Assembly (NCBI GenBank): GCA_005281725.1
Contig: SSBO01000009.1
Span: 1,360,127-1,424,126 of the forward strand
DNA length: 64,000 nucleotides
Direction: 5' to 3'
From: Wuchereria bancrofti
Lineage: Eukaryota > Nematoda > Chromadorea > Rhabditida > Onchocercidae
The notes beneath the pieces are model-generated. The model was given only the letters and a program-made list of their open reading frames with translations. It had not been told where the DNA came from and searched no databases. Each line of letters opens with the position of its first letter. Positions within the stretch are counted from its first letter, which is position 1. The translations under genes and the position numbers were made by a program. Below, in pieces: positions 47,349 through 61,700 of the stretch.

Positions 47349-50300
47349 TTACTTTAAAATAATCGTCAGGAATATTGGAAGTAATATTAGACCATGTATC
47401 ATGCTGAAAATAATAACAAGAAATACCGTTTTGAAAAAGATTTGTACGATATATGCTTGAACTGTTGCAAGTACTAAAATACCAAGCACTGTTGATAAAG
47501 CTCCCTGAAATTAAGAAAAAAAAAAAGAACAGTACGCTTTTTCATTTGTCACTACAATTTCTTAATCTTACTGACATATTAGCTGTATGTAAATTTAATG
47601 AGATATATTCTATTCAGTTTTTTAGTGGTTTATTTTAATTTAATATTTCGTTTGCATTTGGAAGGAGGATCCAATGATAATTGATGTTATCATAACATTA
47701 TGAGTTAAAATATAAGCACAAGTAAAGGTGATAAGTTAATTTTGATGAAATGATATACCATAAAAACAGGCCATCCAATAGTTTCCAATGCACTGATTGC
47801 CTTTTCATGTTGATTTCCATTCGATTTCACATATGCGTAACCAATATGTGCTGATAAATCAACGGCAAAACCAATACTCATAATAACTGTTATTATTGAA
47901 ACACTTTCTAGACGTACACCCCAAAATGTCATAAAACCAATTACACCTGCAAATTCACAATTAATTTCTTCTCAAGACAATTTCTAATGTTTAACATTCC
48001 AAAGAGTAGTTGATAAGATGATGTGAAATAATTAATGGATGTAAATATTGTAAGATTTTACAGTGTAGATTCATCTTGTCATTTAACCTTGTTAACCAAC
48101 AGAACAGATCAGATTAAAAGATATTTTGCAATTTATGAAATTATACAGCCGAAATAAATTTAAAGCGTTTGTTCGTCGAATTAAATGGATTTTTAAAGGA
48201 CTTCAATATTTCCATACTAATTTCTCTATCAATTTCAAATAGTCGTGATATTATCATCTGTTATGAGATTTTAATTTTATCCTCCCAACTGTTACTTATT
48301 TTGAATTGAAAGAAAAGTTAAAATTTAAATATTGCTGTATTAACACACCAATATCAATGCTAAAAATTGCAAATGCAATGACAAATGCAGCAATCCAACT
48401 TGGTATCATGATAAATGATACGATAAGCATAGATAGCATTGCCAGTAAACAATTCCTGATTAATGCTGGCTTCAGTTCAATATACTGCAAATAATCGTTC
48501 TTTACATCTTTCCGTATTATTCTTGAAAACTCGAAATTAGACTGTCTAATTAAATAATAAATTTGATGGATTAACTGAAATACGAGAACATTTTAACAAG
48601 GCTACTTCTATGATTACATTCGATATAAAACATGATAATCCGGAAAATCATCCTGCTCAACTGAATAACTGAATAGTCCTAATAATAAATTAACATTACG
48701 CTACTTGATCTTTCACGGTTCGATTTTGCAAAAGAATAGAAGCTGTAGTTTCAAGTCTATTTATTCATATCTGATCATCCATTTATTCATACCTGATTAT
48801 CTACTTATTCATACCTGATCATCTACTTATTCATACCTGATCATCTACTTATTCATACCTGATCATCTACTTATTCATACCTGATCATTTACTTATTCAT
48901 ACCTGATCATCTACTTATTCATACCTGATCATTTACTTATTCATACCTGATCATTTACTTATTCATACCTGATCATCTACTTATTCATACCTGATCATCT
49001 ACTTATTCATACCTGATCATCTACTTATTCATACCTGATCATCTACTTATTCATACCTGATCATCTACTTATTCATACCTGATCATCTACTTATTCATAC
49101 CTGATCATCTACTTATTCATACCTGATCATCTACTTATTCATACCTGATCATCTACTTATTCATACCTGATCATCTACTTATTCATACCTGATCATCTAC
49201 TTATTCATACCTGATCATCTACTTATTCATACCTGATCATCTACTTATTCATACCTGATCATCTACTTATTCATACCTGATCATCTACTTATTCATACCT
49301 GATCATCTACTTATTCATACCTGATCATCTACTTATTCATACCTGATCATCTACTTATTCATACCTGATCATCTACTTATTCATACCTGATCATCTACTT
49401 ATTCATACCTGATCATCTACTTATTCATACCTGATCATCTACTTATTCATACCTGATCATCTACTTATTCATACCTGATCATCTACTTATTCATACCTGA
49501 TCATCTACTTATTCATACCTGATCATCTACTTATTCATACCTGATCATCTACTTATTCATACCTGATCATCTACTTATTCATACCTGATCATCTACTTAT
49601 TCATACCTGATCATCTACTTATTCATACCTGATCATCTACTTATNTATGAATAAGTAAATGATCAGGTATGAATAAGTAGATGATCAGCTATGAATAAGT
49701 AAATGATCAGGTATGAATAAGTAGATGATCAGGTATGAATAAGTAGATGATCAGGTATGAATAAGTAGATGATCAGCTATGAATAAGTAAATGATCAGGT
49801 ATGAATAAGTAAATGATCAGGTATGAATAAGTAAATGATCAGGTATGAATAAGTAGATGATCAGGTATGAATAAGTAGATGATCAGGTATGAATAAGTAG
49901 ATGATCAGGTATGAATAAGTAGATGATCAGGTATGAATAAGTAGATGATCAGGTATGAATAAGTAGATGATCAGGTATGAATAAGTAAATGATCAGGTAT
50001 GAATAAGTAGATGATCAGGTATGAATAAGTAATGATCAGGTATGAATAAGTAGATGATCAGGTATGAATAAGTAGATGATCAGGTATGAATAAGTAGATG
50101 ATCAGGTATGAATAAGTAGATGATCAGGTATGAATAAGTAGATGATCAGGTATGAATAAGTAGATGATCAGGTATGAATAAGTAGATGATCAGGTATGAA
50201 TAAGTAGATGATCAGCTATGAATAAGTAAATGATCAGGTATGAATAAGTAAATGATCAGGTATGAATAAGTAATGATCAGGTATGAATAAGTGATGATCA

Positions 50301-53300
50301 GGTATGAATAAGTAGATGATCAGGTATGAATAAGTAGATGATCAGGTATGAATAAGTAGATGATCAGGTATGAATAAGTAGATGATCAGGTATGAATAAG
50401 TAGATGATCAGTATGAATATATGACAGTAGAAGTAGATGATCAGGTATGAATAAGTAGATGATCAGGTATGAATAAGTAAATGATCAGGTATGAATAAGT
50501 AGATGATCAGGTATGAATAAGTAGATGATCAGGTATGAATAAGTAGATGATCAGTATGATAATAGATAGTATGAATAGTAGATGATCAGGTATGAATAAG
50601 TAGATGATCAGGTATGAATAAGTAGAATAGATATAGTAAGCAGGTATGAATAAGTAATGATCAGGATATCAGGTATGAATAAGTAGATGATCAGGTATGA
50701 ATAAGTAGATGATCAGGTATGAATAAGTAGATGATCAGGTATGAATAAGTAGATGATCAGGTATGAATAAGTAGATGATCAGGTATGAATAAGTAAATGA
50801 TCAGGTATGAATAAGTAGATGATCAGGTATGAATAAGTAGATGATCAGGTATGAATAAGTAGATGATCAGCTTGATATAATGACATAGAAGTAGATGATC
50901 AGGTATGAATAAGTAGATGATCAGGTGATAATGCTATGAATAAGTAAATGATCAGGTATGAATAAGTAAATGATCAGGTATGAATAAGTAGATGATCAGG
51001 TATGAATAAGTAGATGATCAGGTATGAATAAGTAAGTGATCAGGTATGAATAAGTAGATGATCAGGTATGAATAAGTAAATGATCAGGTATGAATAAGTA
51101 GATGATCAGGTATGAATAAGTAGATGATCAGGTATGAATAAGTAGATGATCAGCTATGAATAAGTAGATGATCAGGTATGAATAAGTAGATGATCAGGTA
51201 TGAATAAGTAGATGATCAGGTATGAATAAGTAATGATCAGGTATGAATAAGTAGATGATCAGCTATGAATAAGTAAATGATCAGGTATGAATAAGTAGAT
51301 GATCAGGTATGAATAAGTAGATGATCAGGTATGAATAAGTAGATGATCAGCTATGAATAAGTAGATGATCAGGTATGAATAAGTAAATGATCAGGTATGA
51401 ATAAGTAAATGATCAGGTATGAATAAGTAGATGATCAGGTATGAATAAGTAAGTGATCAGGTATGAATAAGTAGATGATCAGGTATGAATAAGTAGATGA
51501 TCAGGTATGAATAAGTAGATGATCAACTTAATCATACCTGATCATCTACTTATTCATACCTGATCATCTACTTATTCATACCTGATCATCTACTTATTCA
51601 TACCTGATCATCTACTTATTCATACCTGATCATCTACTTATTCATACCTGATCATCTACTTATTCATACCTGATCATCTACTTATTCATACCTGATCATC
51701 TACTTATTCATACCTGATCATCTACTTATTCATACCTGATCTGCGAATGGATAATATTCATGAAAAGTAGTGATGTTGAATTTTATATATTTGGCTGAAA
51801 TTTTTCGCATCAGTATCGCACTGCGCATATGATCAGTTGGTGTTTTATAATTTCGGAGTCCAAGTTGAAAACGAAAAGCAAACAGATGATTATATGTCTA
51901 TAAAGAAAAAAATTCATTTTTATATTGAAATTTTAGATGAAAATATACCTTCACAATATCTTCTTCTTACTGATTACCTTGAGATGAAACAAATAAACAT
52001 AGTAATTTTTATTAGTTGCAAAGTTTATTGCTTACATTTTGACGAAGCAGAAAATTTTCAATTTAGATTACATTGAAGTTTTGATTAACTATTGCTAATA
52101 ATAGTTATTTTACTACCAATAATGATTATTTTCACTTATCCTGTACAAAAATTCGAAAATTGATTGCAAATCTGTTTAATAAGACCCACTTTTGGGTCGC
52201 TTTCATTTTTGCCCCAAACCATATCTTTTTCCCATAAACGTCGTCCACCAGCTGATATTAGCCATTCTCGACATCGTCCGTACCATTCTTCACTTCTAAA
52301 ATTAAATTTCTTTTCGGAAATTTTTTAAAATAATTATACGTTAATACAACACTAAAAAAATACTTCACTTTATAAATTAAATTTCCGAAGTTCATTTTCA
52401 GGAATTCGTTCATTCGTAGAAAAGCATTAATTAATCAAAGATATTACGAAATATTACTATTTCTATTTAGTATTTACGTTTTTGGTAGTGGAATCTTTGA
52501 AAAATTGTAATCGTCTCTAAGCTTTTTTTCGTAGGCATCAAGCCATATCATTGTCGCATTATGTCGCATCGTATATTCTGTATTTTCAAAATCATTGAGC
52601 ATATTCTGGAACTCTTTTCTTTCCTTGGGATTAAACAGATCAGGTGGTGAATTTACCACAACTTGCATTTGTAGGCCTAAATTATAAATTTTATACAGCG
52701 AATAATCTCTGAATAATAGATTTGTTAGAAAAATATGTGAAAGAATTGTCACAATTGCCCATAATGATGAATGAAGAAATTCTAATTTTCCATTTTTCTG
52801 CATAATATTTTATTACAAACTTTCGAAATTCCGCCTTGCTTGTTATTTATGTTTTATTTTTAAGAAAAATTTCATTAATGCAAATTTCAGTAATGCATAT
52901 GTCAACTCTGTTATACTACTATTACAAAAAATAATTTATCGCTAATTCATTCTTTCATACAATATAATTAATATAAGTATAATTAAATTCACTTAAACTT
53001 ACTACTGCTTGAATATTAAAAAAAAATGTCAAGCTATTTTGATATATTGGATGGAATGAATACATCAAAATGAAATACAAATTTTACTTTCTCAAATATC
53101 TGATTTTTCTTTTAATGAAGTTCAATTAAATTCTCTTTTCTTAATGTAGCTGTTGAAACTTGAAATGGAATACACTAATATTCTGTTTATCTTTCCAATC
53201 GACATTTCTATTACCAAACAATCAACAGTCCATTACATCGTCGATAGTAATAAATCAAATTTAATATTTTATTCAAAATTGATTAATTGATCATACCTTC

Positions 53301-56300
53301 TTCCCAGAATGTTTCATCCATTAATATATAAAATTTGCTGAGATAAAATGAATCCAGAACAAGAAATTTCGGATTTAGACCTTCCTTCAACATTGTACAA
53401 CCCAATATTGCTAATGATAAATAGATGATATAAATGAAAATAAAAACTTTCATGGTGAAACAATCAAGCAAGAAAGGACCGTAATGTTCGCGGAATATTT
53501 TCGAAATCATTGTTTCACGATGTTTCGATTTCGGTAGTTCCTAAATTGTTGAATTATTCATATATACTCTCATCATTATTAAATATTTAATTTCTAAACT
53601 TACTATCAATATATAATTATGCAATTCCATAAAATATCGATGATTTTTTGCCACTTCAATCTTAACACAAAGTTTTTTTTTTTTTGAATTTAATTTCACA
53701 CTGTTTCGAATTGACAGTAGCATAGCTTAATGAATGCGTGTACTTTCTTCGTAAACAAGAAAACTGTAGCATTAATTGAATATTTTTTTTTTTCCTTTAA
53801 TTATTAAATCAAATTTTAAATGAATTACAGGAGTGGACGATGCATTTATTATGATTCAAAGTTGGACCAGTTTAAAGGCCAAAACATCTCGCAAAGAGCG
53901 ATTAGCGCAAGTTTTTATCGAAATTGGACCATTATCACTTATCACTTAAGTAGCACGTAAGTATGACGCCATACGTGAGAAGTATGATGTAATGTATGTT
54001 ACCATCTATTCCGTATTCAAAAGACCATTTAGCGGCATACTTTCTTTGATACTAGCTTACGTCATGCTAACTACGAAATGAGTCATAGTCAATTTATGAA
54101 CTTTTTCTCTTTCTTGTGTACTCATTTGAATAAACCTGTCATCAATTCGGACTGATACTTTGACCTATACTTTGATACTTTGACCTTCTAATGAATTATT
54201 ACTGTTCTCTATGAGAATCACATAAACTTTGCAATAGTTAAAAGGAAAAAACGCTAACCTTATTTAAGCTTTGTTTAAAATCCATGAATTTCTTACGCAT
54301 TTTTTGACTTAATGTAGTTTTCACATTTTCCACCACTTTCTCATTTTTTGTTACATTTTCTTGCACAATTTCAGGTGGTATCTTTGATTTCAATGATACG
54401 CTACCCGTTAGAAATAGTTTTTTAAATAAATTATCTGAAATAAAAAAAAAAAAGGAAATCTTAACATTTCCCAAAAAATGATTTTTAAAAAATTCTCAAC
54501 AAAAAAAAAAGGAAGAGTAAAATCTTCTAACCGGCTAATTCCTGACTGATAACTGGTTTTAATGTTATCGCATGCAATCCATCACTTTCTCGTTTTCCAC
54601 TAAATGCCATAACAGCGGTGAAAAATGTTAACTGATAAAGATAAGTGAATGCTATGCCCATAAATGTATAAAAACAAAACATTTGTACGCTTGGTAATGT
54701 TGTCAAACAGCCAATGCCAAAAGTTAGCTAAAAAAAAAAAAAAAACAAATATGTGAAATTTGTTACAATTTGATAAATTAGTTATGATAGTTGCATTTGT
54801 TGATAAATACACAAATATATTCAGGAATTGCCATCAGTTTCGATCATTTAAATTGCGCAGTTTTTCGATATATCCGGTTTAGCAGACCGGATACAAATTA
54901 TACACTGATCTTCTGAATTACCACTAAACGAACAGTCAAAAATTCCGTTCATTCTGTTTCCAGCAGACAGTGTACTTTTAAATCTTAACTATTTGTTTAT
55001 TCCATATCAATTTATCAGTGAATAATGTTATCAGTGATAATGAATGATACCATATCAGTGATTGTTGTTATTGATATTGCAACTGCTGCTTCAGCAAGTG
55101 ATTCGGATAAACGATGTGAAACACTTTGTTCAACATTTGTTCGATGCCAAGCTGCGCTCATTATGAACATATCATCCACACCGATGCCTTTGTAATTATA
55201 CAAAATTATATTTTCTTAATAAATTAATCAACCAAAATTTTCATTTACACTAATTATCATTTTTTTTTTTTAGTACCTTTTTTGCATGACAAAAATGTGC
55301 AAAATATTGAAATGATTGAGAAAATAAATAAATTCCAATATTTTTTGCGCAATGTCATTAATTAATACAGTATAATTAACAATACAAATGTAAAAAAAAA
55401 AAACTTCAATTTTTATACGAATAAAATAGATGAATTTATTTTGAAATGATTGAAATGAACTTACAAAAGACGATAAATGGTGATACGTTGACAATAGCAT
55501 TGTATAAAAAACCCATCCATAAAATTAAACCAAATGCACTTATAATTGCAAGTAAAGGACAAAATAAACCTGAAAATGTATAATTAAAATTTTATTTATA
55601 ATATTTCATCTAAGAACCCAGTCATAAGTAAGTATGTCATGTGAATCATTGAAATTTCAAAAATCAAACTATAAAAGGTTGGAGATATTATATAATTTGT
55701 TCAAAGTTTTACAACGGAGTAGTGCCACAGTAATAGAGGAACTAACTTAAGTAAAAATTGGTGCTACGTCAATATTAGCTTACGAAAAGGAACAGAAAAA
55801 CATTTGATAACGTGTGGAAAAAAGTATTTACTTAAGTCATTTATGTAAAAATGGAAGATAAAAGTTTTAAATCGTAATATAAATCAAATATTTACAATCA
55901 TTATTTGAATTATAATGCTTCCTAACAATTTATTAATAATTGAATAATTTAATTTTATGTTTAAAGTTACAGTGTAAATGTTAAGGTTAAAGTTGAGAAT
56001 TGATAAAATTCATTGCTTACAGATGTCATAACTTTCTATTACGGACATGAACGGATGACAAGTGGTGGAATCGGTCTTACCGGCTAATGCTATTGTCGGT
56101 TTGCTGCGTACCCAGTCGATGGTAATGAACCCATCATTATGTCTATACAAAACAATAGCGCTTAATCCGCAAAGCGAGAATAAGACGAAACAAGTGATTG
56201 CAAACTTTGGTGACAATGAATCAGCAACTTGTTGCAAGCCTTCCGGTAAACTTTCATTATGATACATACCAAATTCCAGGATGTCTACAAAAATGAAACA

Positions 56301-58765
56301 CCTGAAAATCTATTCAGAAATAGTTTATGAGTGTATTTTCTATAATTATACCGTGTACAACAAATCTGCTTTCCGGAAAGACGGATAGTAAATCGTTTTG
56401 TGTTGTATTAATTTGGTAAAAGGATTGCTGCAACTGCTAACTGTTAATTTTATTGGTTTTATTAAAAAAGAAAGCAGTTATGGTCATTTAATTGTATTGA
56501 ATACGTTTCTGATTTTTCTATTTGAAAAACAGGATCCAGAAATGTGTAAGGTTAAAGGTTAAAGAAGAAAGCTTAACATACTGGACGCTGGATTCTTGAC
56601 GTCAGATAAAAAACCGGCAACCTTTTTACGCCACAAGTAGCTAATATTACCAACTTTTTCATCCCGAACATTATAGGTAAGTCTGACAGCTCGGACGTAG
56701 TTGAAATGACCTTCCTGAAAATAATATTGCAATAGCAAAAGAGACAGTAGCATTCACTTCGTAAACAAACATATCAACCGGACCAGTGCATTCACTCCGT
56801 AAATAAACATATCAACTGGACCAGTGCATTCACTTCGTAAATAAACATATCAACCGGACCAGTGTATTCACTCCGTAAATAAACATATCAACCGGACCAG
56901 TGCATTCACTCCGTAAATAAATATATCAACCGGTTGAATTTAAAAATGATAGCATAAATTAAATAGCCATAAGTTAAAAGGCAGTTTTGCACTGAATCTT
57001 GACTCATTTAATTTGAGGAAATATCCATCATTTCACTAATTGCATAAACTCTTTAGGACTCTAATCTAGGCCATATACTAGGCTCTGAGACTTGGACTAG
57101 ACCCAAAGACTAGTCCTCGAACTCCTAATCGTCATGTTTTGTACACAAATCTGTAAAGGTATATTTACTTTGTCGATGATATGGGGCGCACCAATTAATG
57201 CGCCAAAATAGATTGGTTCAGTTCCACGCCAACCGATTGGATAAGTTATTTTAACCTGTAAAAAGTGACATATTAATAATAAATCATCTTGCATTCAAAA
57301 ATAGATCAATGATTTCAAAGAAAAAGACCGGATAATGACGTGGAATGCGTATGTCATGTGTATGCTGACGTAAAACGTGGATTACTTCACGTGGATTACT
57401 TGTAAAAGAAGTAGAAGACTGGAAAAGTTGTGAAATGAATTGAATTATATATTACAAAAAAAAAAAAAGTGGAAATACCTCGTTACTATAAGAAAATATG
57501 TCAACTTGAATTTGAAAAATGGATGTAATTATGAACGGTTGATTGGAATTAATGCTTTAAACAAATCACTAATCAAATTTTCATTATTTAAATAAATTTA
57601 TTCATTCAAAAATTAATTAAAACTATGAAAGGATTGTTTATCTTACCTCATTATTGATTATATCATCAGTAAATTCAGCTAATTTCGAATCAAAATTTCC
57701 CCATCGTTCTTTTGGCATAAGCATTGTCACATGTTCGTTCATAAAACATTTCCAGTCGTAGGACATGCATAAATCCGTAAAACCAACTTCGTATGTTATA
57801 TCATTGTGTGTTACTGATATTGTAATATTGTGTATAATATGCTGAAAAGATGAATTAGAATCATTTATCATTTTAATTATTCTAAATTTATTAATTGAAT
57901 AGTAATCGATCGTATATTATTGATAGCGATTATATCTTGATAGTATTATCCAATTTTTATGATAATATTTTGAGAAATGATAATGACAACAATACAATTC
58001 TTTTCATTGATTATTATTTTAAATGATCAATATAAAGAAGTTAATTTATTTCAAAAAGTTTGATAATCATTAATTGAAATAATACCTGATTAATTCGTTC
58101 TAACTCATCCAAATATTTTAACACCAACATATTTGGTCGTCCAAATTTAGGATGTTTTATCCCAGCTGCTATAATATCCACATATCCCGTATAGTCATAA
58201 CTTTTTCCAGGCCAAAATTCCTGTTCATTTAAAGGCCAATAATCACTGAGTACTTTTTTCTCGTAACGCCATTGAGCATTTTTCGGTGAGAAAACGTATT
58301 CCGGATCGATTGTCGTCTGCAAAAAATTCATTCTTAAATTTTTTTTCTTTTTTTTTTAAATAAGCGTAGGTTCAAGACTTATTTCTGCATACAATCAAAT
58401 GAAGGATTTGATTATAAATTTACCTGGAATAGATTAGAATGTTTAATTGCTCCTATTGATTGACTTATTGGCTGATCAGTTTCAATTTACAACTTGTCTT
58501 AATTTAATTTAGCTTAAACTAAACTAAAATGAAACACAAGTAGTTAAAATTAAGAGATACTCTCTTGCTCATAGTTTGCTAACTTTTTAGTCAGGAAAAA
58601 AAAAGAAAAGAAAAAGTTTACCTGTTTTTTGATAAACAAAAATCCAAAACTAAGAGCTATTGTTAACAAGATTGGTCCAATAAACAGAATGAATCGAAAA
58701 CGATAAGCAATTGAACCCCAACGATAGAATAATTGTTGTATGAGATTATCAAAAGATAACATCAT
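47349..58765 (-). CDS. Patched-related (PTR) family membrane protein with sterol-sensing domain
   Basis: Exons 5' to 3' (-): 58622-58765, 58086-58316, 57647-57841, 57169-57255, 56582-56714, 56352-about 56433, 56081-56284, 55465-55569, 55051-55187, 54532-54727, 54259-54434, 53297-53540, 52478-52676, 52190-52295, 51736-51897, 48349-48484, 47759-47946, 47349-47504; about 960 residues, normal for the family. A first membrane helix (about residues 25-47) precedes a large extracellular part. The sterol-sensing region includes SPFIVFCIGVDDMFIM and DMLTFGIGCLTTLPSV. The second half carries LFAFRFQLGLRNYKTPTD, FADQ joined to YIELKPAL, GVIGFMTFWGVRLESVS and FAVDLSAHIGYAYV, then a final helix pair. PTR proteins are RND-superfamily relatives of Patched, expanded in nematodes and linked to cuticle and membrane traffic. 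All junctions are in phase except exon 5 to 6, which I could not settle. A 3 kb satellite fills the intron before 48484. Confidence 0.88.
48756..51740. repeat. 22-bp satellite array seeded at a PTR 5' splice site
   Basis: About 3 kb of a 22-bp repeat lies inside the PTR intron 48485-51735. In the gene's direction (-) the unit contains GATCAG/GTATGAATAAG, where the slash is the exon-intron junction of PTR exon 51736-51897. The six exon bases GATCAG (codons D-Q) and sixteen intron bases make one unit. By length there are about 40 units at 48756-49644, about 85 in the opposite orientation at 49646-51525, and about 10 at 51526-51740. Copies are most uniform next to the exon and degenerate at the far end near 48756-48810. 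Variants include GATAAATGAT-type changes, CAGCTATG (donor GT lost) and 21-base units. A single N stands at 49645. Confidence 0.95.
53831..53949 (+). pseudogene. Orphan PTR exon relic on the opposite strand
   Basis: After AATTACAG ending at 53830, a + strand frame reads GVDDAFIMIQSW, then KERLAQVFIEIGPLSLIT and a stop at 53947-53949. This is the sterol-sensing-domain exon that follows the VDD motif of PTR proteins. It differs clearly from the matching exon of the resident gene (55051-55187). It lies antisense in the PTR intron 53541-54258, with no partner exons seen on the + strand. It is best read as a fragment of another PTR gene inserted in inverted orientation. Confidence 0.75.
56752..56938. 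repeat. 38-bp tandem repeat in a PTR intron
   Basis: Nearly five copies of a 38-bp unit with core CATATCAACCGGACCAGTGC lie in the intron between PTR exons 4 and 5. Copies differ by a few bases (CACTCCG or CACTTCG, CAACCGG or CAACTGG). No function is evident. Confidence 0.9.
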
Positions 58766-61246: not shown

Positions 61247-61700
61247 GTTAGAGAGTGTGGGTAATGTGACTGGGTGACTGTAAGATGTGTGGGTAATGTG
61301 ACAGGATGACCGTAAGATGTGTGGGTAATGTGACTGGGTGACTGTAAAATGTGTGGGTAATGTGACTGGGTGACTGCAAGATGTGTGGGTAATGTGGCTG
61401 GGTGACTGTAAAATGTGTGGGTAATGTGACTGGGTGACTGTAAGATGTATGGGTAATGTGACAGGATAACCGTAAGATGTGTGGGTAATGTGACGATGAC
61501 TGTAAGATATGTGGGTAATGTGACTGGGTGACTGTAAGATGTGTGGGTAATGTGACTGGGTGACTGTAAGATGTATGGGTAATGTGACAGGATAACCGTA
61601 AGATGTGTGGGTAATGTGGCTGGGTGACTGTAAAATGTGTGGGTAATGTGACTGGGTGACTGCAAGATGTGTGGGTAATGTGGCTGGGTGACTGTAAAAT
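61247..61700. repeat. 32-bp minisatellite with higher-order pattern
   Basis: About 14 copies of a 32-bp unit (core GTGTGGGTAATGTGAC) form this array. Three main unit types (TGACTGGG, TGACAGGA, TGGCTGGG) recur in the same order: units 6-7 match units 10-11, and units 4-5 match 13-14, so blocks of several units have been copied together. One unit is shortened. Two long - strand open frames (163 and 157 codons) run through it only because the repeat lacks stop codons. Confidence 0.92.

What the first reader, a model, noticed from the sequence alone, without database searches (positions are those of the whole stretch)
48756..51740. Satellite grown from a gene's own 5' splice site
Seen: the PTR exon ending at 51736 reads GCAGATCAG and the intron starts GTATGAATAAG on the - strand. 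The adjoining 22-bp array consists of the last six exon bases plus sixteen intron bases, repeated over about 3 kb. The first unit overlaps the true exon end, and copies become degenerate away from the exon. The next exon (48349-48484) still joins in phase to give FADQ-YIELKPAL, normal for PTR proteins. Inference: slippage or unequal exchange at the exon-intron boundary amplified a functional splice donor about a hundred times inside a gene that still looks intact. I know of no described array built from repeated native donor sites.
Basis: partly seen in the sequence, partly recalled or inferred. Interest (0 to 1): 0.85.

Follow-up and report, generated by a model that had tools for sequence, protein, structure and literature searches.

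The report
Tandem repeat seeded at splice donor
In a filarial worm, a short stretch straddling the end of one exon of an intact membrane-protein gene has been copied head to tail dozens of times into the following intron; this looks real and recurs in other genes of the same worm, but it belongs to a kind already described in lancelets and humans.

Summary
The array is in the sequence. On the - strand the PTR exon 51897-51736 ends ...FADQ; a 22-bp unit (last 6 exon + first 16 intron bases) fills 51741-48755 of a 3251-nt intron, and the next exon joins in phase. The genome-wide count of copies (up to 3 mismatches) is 126, the same as in the window. The Asp-Gln coded by the six exon bases is present in 47 of 47 homologues covering it, so the exon seeded the array. 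Corrections: orientation switches twice. About 49 units are sense; about 82 pieces are inverted, more heterogeneous, and end at the window's only N (49645), so that block is probably an assembly fold-back. 'A hundred donors' is not supported. Nor is it unique: of 14 donor-motif array loci read in this genome, 4 (this included) start exactly at a donor in a recognisable gene (P-glycoprotein-like; calsyntenin, weak match; phospholipase C), a fifth at an unidentified ORF; one other array sits on an acceptor. The kind is known: lancelet 'mirages' and, by citation, the human 6-16/IFI6 minisatellite. Best reading: ordinary minisatellite births whose seed straddled a splice boundary, tolerated because the first donor stays in place.

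The parts
51736..51897 (-). PTR (patched-related, SSD-domain) exon ending ...FHEYYPFADQ; its last 6 bases GATCAG are the first 6 of the repeat unit
   Evidence: P0001 residues 719-772 match 51897-51736 at 100%
51522..51741 (-). proximal sense block, 10 units of 22 bp, 9 exact, first unit overlapping the exon end
49646..51520 (+). inverted block, 82 unit pieces, 53 exact, 11 of other length; probably an assembly fold-back
49645..49645 (.). single N, the only one in the window, at the second orientation switch: probable assembly join
48755..49644 (-). distal sense block, about 40 units, most exact, last two degenerate
48349..48484 (-). next PTR exon, YIELKPAL...FSIDI, phase 0 start after acceptor TATTTGCAG
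47352..58762 (-). PTR gene on the - strand, stretch covered by matches to P0001 (931 aa, UniRef label Wuchereria bancrofti)

Best explanation
A mirage-type minisatellite. A 22-bp stretch straddling the 5' splice site of this PTR intron was duplicated in tandem and then expanded into the intron by slippage or unequal exchange. The first copy stays attached to the exon, so the original donor is kept and the protein is unchanged; the extra copies lie in the intron. Use of any later donor would add GTA TGA at once (Val-stop), so such transcripts would be truncated and probably degraded. The same happened at other exon ends in this genome and needs no splice-site-specific mechanism: random minisatellite seeds will straddle a boundary now and then. 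Shown: unit composition, locus specificity, age order of exon and array, recurrence. Inferred: slippage, use of the first donor in vivo, assembly origin of the inverted block.
For: Unit = exon end + intron start, with 6 exact exon bases in each of the 4 downstream units compared. Genome count 126 equals window count 126. Asp-Gln in 47 of 47 covering homologues. Two paralogues carry GATCAG at the same codons. An annotated W. bancrofti protein joins FADQ-YIEL and matches the window's exons. Later donors give V-stop. Other arrays starting exactly at a donor: L068 (22 bp, ABC transporter), L076 (24 bp, calsyntenin by a weak match), L080 (44 bp, phospholipase C), L074 (31 bp, unidentified ORF); one on an acceptor, L084 (28 bp x3). 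Published equivalents.
Against: No orthologous intron DNA from another filarial worm could be read, so the single-copy ancestor is not seen. No RNA reads, so first-donor use is not shown. In L076 the unit shares 0-1 exon bases, so that array abuts rather than straddles the boundary. 9 of the 14 donor-motif array loci read showed no exon that I could recognise, by eye in a few hundred bases and without a family search.
Confidence: 0.83

Rival explanations
1. Part of the array as assembled is an artefact, which is compatible with the best explanation: the inverted middle block is a fold-back at a contig end, joined to the next contig by one N, and the true copy number is unknown. (Wording narrowed from 'the array, or most of it' to the part that the stated odds were meant for.)
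For: The only N of the window lies at an orientation switch. Exact units are rarer in the inverted block (53 of 82 pieces against 43 of 49 sense pieces, Fisher p 0.004), with 11 pieces of aberrant length. None of the 23 other array rows in window plus L066-L084 has inverted copies.
Against: Both sense blocks join unique flanking sequence, and the exon-side block is contiguous with the exon. The inverted block holds recurring unit variants that are partly linked (4 of 6 CAGCTATG units also carry AAAT, Fisher p 0.012), so it looks like true array sequence in doubtful orientation rather than noise.
Confidence: 0.6
2. Splice-site-specific amplification: something about active donors (for example R-loops or pausing) promotes minisatellite birth there.
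For: 4 of 14 donor-motif array loci start exactly at a donor of a recognisable gene, and a fifth at an unidentified ORF.
Against: The scans looked for donor motifs, so the fraction is biased. Of the six answered donor scans, the reversed control pattern had more hits than the donor pattern in four and fewer in two. A rough count (5 arrays in 84 kb; donor density of about 1 per kb assumed, not measured) lets about 3% of random seeds straddle a donor, more than enough. An acceptor case exists.
Confidence: 0.08
3. Intron creation by AGGT tandem duplication (Rogers model): the intron itself was born from the repeat.
For: Each intact unit carries AG|GT, and published potato and fission-yeast cases involve tandem duplicates (PMC4974935, passages).
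Against: Two paralogues have a donor-like GT at the same codon boundary, and an Elaeophora model seems to read into an intron there. The acceptor TATTTGCAG at 48485 lies outside the array.
Confidence: 0.02

Closest known systems
Mirages of lancelets (Adh3, globin, troponin C, PGBD5)
   Same: Minisatellite-like tandem copies of an exon-intron boundary, 5' or 3', units 10-72 bp in Adh3, AG/GT signals in many copies, splicing reported undisturbed (PMC3087553 and PMC3902484, passages only)
   Different: Here a filarial nematode, a higher copy number than the 3 and 6 units given for BflGb6 (about 50 sense units assembled), and no RNA or instability data
Human 6-16/IFI6 minisatellite (Turri et al. 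1995)
   Same: By title and citing text, a minisatellite giving multiple splice donor sites, two downstream repeat units being used as donors (PMC4526556, passages; the paper itself is not held)
   Different: There downstream copies are used; here 22 bp is not a multiple of 3 and later donors read Val-stop. The 12-bp unit of 6-16 is recalled, from no call
Internal tandem repeats at exon-intron boundaries of human segmentally duplicated genes
   Same: Minisatellites at exon-intron boundaries altering introns (PMC2812944, passages)
   Different: Those are described as generating alternative splicing or new introns; no such change is predicted here
AGGT tandem-duplication intron gain (Rogers; Hellsten)
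   Same: Tandem copies of an AG|GT segment (PMC4974935, passages)
   Different: The intron here appears to predate the array

Membership tests
mirage-type minisatellite | tandem unit spans a native exon-intron boundary | tested here: met
   6 exon + 16 intron bases
mirage-type minisatellite | unit is specific to the host gene | tested here: met
   126 copies in the genome, 126 in the window
mirage-type minisatellite | copies retain AG/GT splice signals | tested here: met
   49 sense CAGGTATGA cores
mirage-type minisatellite | regular splicing undisturbed | tested here: inconclusive
   only an annotated protein joining FADQ-YIEL (P0001); no RNA
mirage-type minisatellite | length and somatic instability | not testable with these tools
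   needs reads from individuals and tissues
6-16/IFI6-type donor minisatellite | downstream copies used as alternative donors | not testable with these tools
   predicted products are Val-stop; no RNA
AGGT intron gain | intron created by the duplication | tested here: not met
   donor-like GT at the same codon boundary in two paralogues and an Elaeophora read-through model, (sequence reading, no RNA)
dispersed satellite DNA | copies at other genomic places | tested here: not met
   none outside the array at up to 3 mismatches

The most novel reading that the evidence does not exclude
Filarial genomes carry a recurrent class of minisatellites born preferentially at splice donors, and the inverted block here is real, so that the PTR pre-mRNA folds its own donor into a long hairpin that tunes splicing or feeds small-RNA silencing of the gene.
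Probability: 0.05. Interest if true: 0.75.

Novelty: new member of a known kind. Interest (0 to 1): 0.42.

Why it matters
It extends boundary-straddling minisatellites to a parasitic nematode, with several cases in one genome and on both the donor and the acceptor side. Such arrays are natural tests of how the spliceosome picks one of dozens of identical donors, and a source of intron length change and possibly new introns. They also warn annotators and assemblers: exon ends inside arrays invite wrong gene models and orientation errors.

Tried and rejected
Dispersed satellite landing at the exon: rejected, no copies elsewhere within 3 mismatches. New intron by AGGT duplication: rejected. Self-folding of the unit as a driver of instability: the DNA fold of five units is unremarkable (z -1.48, 14 of 200 shuffles as good). 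The 38 bp x4.9 array at 56745-56933 in the same gene ends about 30 bp short of the acceptor at 56714, so it does not touch a splice site. Pfam on the 134-aa PTR fragment gave nothing; family membership rests on homologues carrying PF12349 and PF02460. Pfam on the calsyntenin exon is below the curated cut-off (18.0 against 27 bits, E 0.0015), and a neighbouring exon gave nothing. Pfam gave nothing for the L068 upstream exon, the L074 ORF or the L080 exon alone; the phospholipase C naming rests on two exons further down the same strand, and EF-hand matches to a two-exon join are below cut-off. The paralogue reading was a crude pattern over 27 loci, of which most gave no match at the place. Scan lists were cut after contig C9, so donor arrays on later contigs are under-counted. 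Hits seen and not fetched: nearly all pairs of two donor words; C9:10266894 (27-bp Gly-rich-looking repeat) and C12:11648418 (no array); short GGTAA-type repeats on C3, C10 and C15; and the acceptor-scan hits other than the two arrays.

Full report
What is there. The - strand carries a PTR (patched-related, SSD-domain) gene that looks intact. Its exon 51897-51736 ends ...FHEYYPFADQ with GCAGATCAG|GTATGAATAAG, and the next exon, 48484-48349, starts YIELKPAL in phase 0. The 3251-nt intron between them is mostly a 22-bp array, unit GATCAGGTATGAATAAGTAGAT, from 51741 to 48755: 126 matches at up to 3 mismatches, against none in 100 shuffles.

The array has three blocks. Ten units next to the exon run in the sense direction (9 exact). 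Then comes an inverted block, 51520-49646, of 82 unit pieces, 53 exact and 11 of other length. A single N at 49645, the only N in the window, marks the return to about 40 sense units (39 pieces counted, 34 exact). Exact units are rarer in the inverted block (53 of 82 against 43 of 49; Fisher p 0.004). In window plus loci L066-L084 (130 kb), none of the 23 other array rows has inverted copies. I therefore think that the inverted block is a fold-back at a contig end, joined by an N. Its unit variants recur and are partly linked (4 of 6 CAGCTATG units also carry AAAT, p 0.012), which suggests real array sequence in doubtful orientation. A true hairpin beside the donor would probably harm splicing (inference). 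On the transcribed strand there are 49 CAG|GTATGA cores, not a hundred.

Which came first. The six exon bases encode Asp-Gln. Of the 64 proteins, 48 gave an alignment there; 47 cover the two residues, and all 47 have D and Q, wasps and a starfish included. A crude pattern over 27 paralogue loci of the same genome found GATCAG at C3:7.07 Mb, with a donor-like GT directly after it, and at C12:7.83 Mb, where coding continues; C12:11.51 Mb has GATCAA followed by GTAAGT; three more keep D-Q or E-Q without a donor-like GT there, and most loci gave no match at the place. An Elaeophora elaphi model ends FADQVLIN, as if reading into an intron at the same place, and its second intron codon is not the TGA of this array. 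So exon and, by this reading, intron predate the array, and the unit was copied from the boundary.

Locus specificity. A whole-genome scan counted 76 + 50 = 126 copies, the same number as in the window.

Species. P0001, a UniRef entry labelled Wuchereria bancrofti, matches the exons, and a second W. bancrofti model (P0004) includes 35 of 35 residues read from what is intron here (54164-54060).

Other cases in the genome. Six answered scans for closely spaced donor-like words led me to 14 array loci, the window included. Five start exactly at the GT after an open exon. They are the window and four others. L068 (C3:466 kb, 21-22 bp x24): exon ...LLFGSVK, 5-6 exon bases in three of the four downstream units compared, the fourth out of register; the next exon matches ABC_membrane and P-glycoproteins. 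L076 (C3:612 kb, 24 bp): exon ...SNEFLVT, weak match to CLSTN_C, 0-1 exon bases. L080 (C1:11.57 Mb, 44 bp, about three units): exon ...FHALDANQT, 10 exon bases in the first two downstream units; two exons further down the strand match PI-PLC-X. L074 (C11:658 kb, 31 bp): an ATG-started ORF without family, 5 exact exon bases. That makes four in recognisable genes, one of them by a weak match, and one unidentified. The other nine (L069 to L073, L075, L077 to L079) showed no exon that I could recognise by eye in a few hundred bases, without a family search; a short exon before the L077 array cannot be excluded. Of two acceptor-like arrays fetched, L084 carries 28 bp x3 of CATTTTCAG|GTAAACTGTTAAACTTTTT running into an ORF that looks like a last coding exon (no family search), and L083 shows no exon.

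How it most likely works. With period at least 12, three copies and TRF score 100, I count 5 arrays in the 84 kb of window, L066 and L067, roughly 5,000 per genome. If donors occur about once per kb (assumed, not measured) and units are about 30 bp, about 3% of random seeds would straddle a donor. No special mechanism is needed. When a seed straddles a donor, duplication leaves the first donor in place, so the array falls into the intron and is tolerated. A later donor would read GTA TGA, Val-stop, so first-donor use should be under selection (inference). Reversed control patterns had more hits than the donor patterns and fewer in 46 and 52 (and fewer than the acceptor pattern in 75, 5 against 14). 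So there is no consistent sign that donor words as such are enriched in arrays.

What is known. Lancelet genes carry 'mirages', minisatellite-like tandem duplications of exon-intron boundaries, at 5' or 3' sites, with units of 10-72 bp in Adh3, AG/GT signals in many copies, undisturbed splicing and length instability (PMC3087553, passages; PMC3902484, one passage). C. elegans intronic minisatellites have been linked to alternative splicing (CeRep25B, PMC4039745, passages), but the passages do not describe copies of a boundary. My searches listed no filarial or nematode report of boundary copies; listings were seen by title and start of abstract, and the library lacks most subscription papers.

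Verdict. A locus-born, donor-seeded minisatellite of a known kind, with several siblings in the same genome and a probable assembly error in its middle.

Noticed in passing
L068 1879-2397 (C3:466379-466897): 21-22 bp x24 array starting at the donor of a P-glycoprotein-like ABC transporter exon, unit TTAAG|GTAAGTTTAGTTGTATG-like: a second donor-seeded array.
   Followed up: yes
L076, L080, L074: Three more arrays starting exactly at an exon's GT (calsyntenin by a weak match, phospholipase C, unidentified ORF).
   Followed up: partly
L084 771-854: 28-bp x3 array straddling an acceptor and running into an ORF that looks like a last coding exon.
   Followed up: partly
L083 839-1194 (C12:22578 kb): 39-bp x9 array with TTTCAG|GTAAT twice per unit, an acceptor and a donor back to back like a zero-length exon; no exon recognised.
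   Followed up: no
P0005 (Setaria digitata): The FADQ-ending 54-residue exon occurs twice in tandem, identical, in the annotated orthologue: exon duplication or assembly or annotation artefact at the same boundary.
   Followed up: no
P0033 (Angiostrongylus costaricensis): Gene model with 49 extra residues exactly between FADQ and YLEL, probably a retained intron.
   Followed up: no
window 56745-56933 and 61255-61697: Two other minisatellites (38 bp x4.9 in an intron of the same gene, 32 bp x13.9 upstream of its first exon) that do not touch recognised splice sites.
   Followed up: partly
L073: 30-bp donor-like array holding 196 N, both sides in the same orientation, seemingly on the strand opposite to a gene (by eye).
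   Followed up: no
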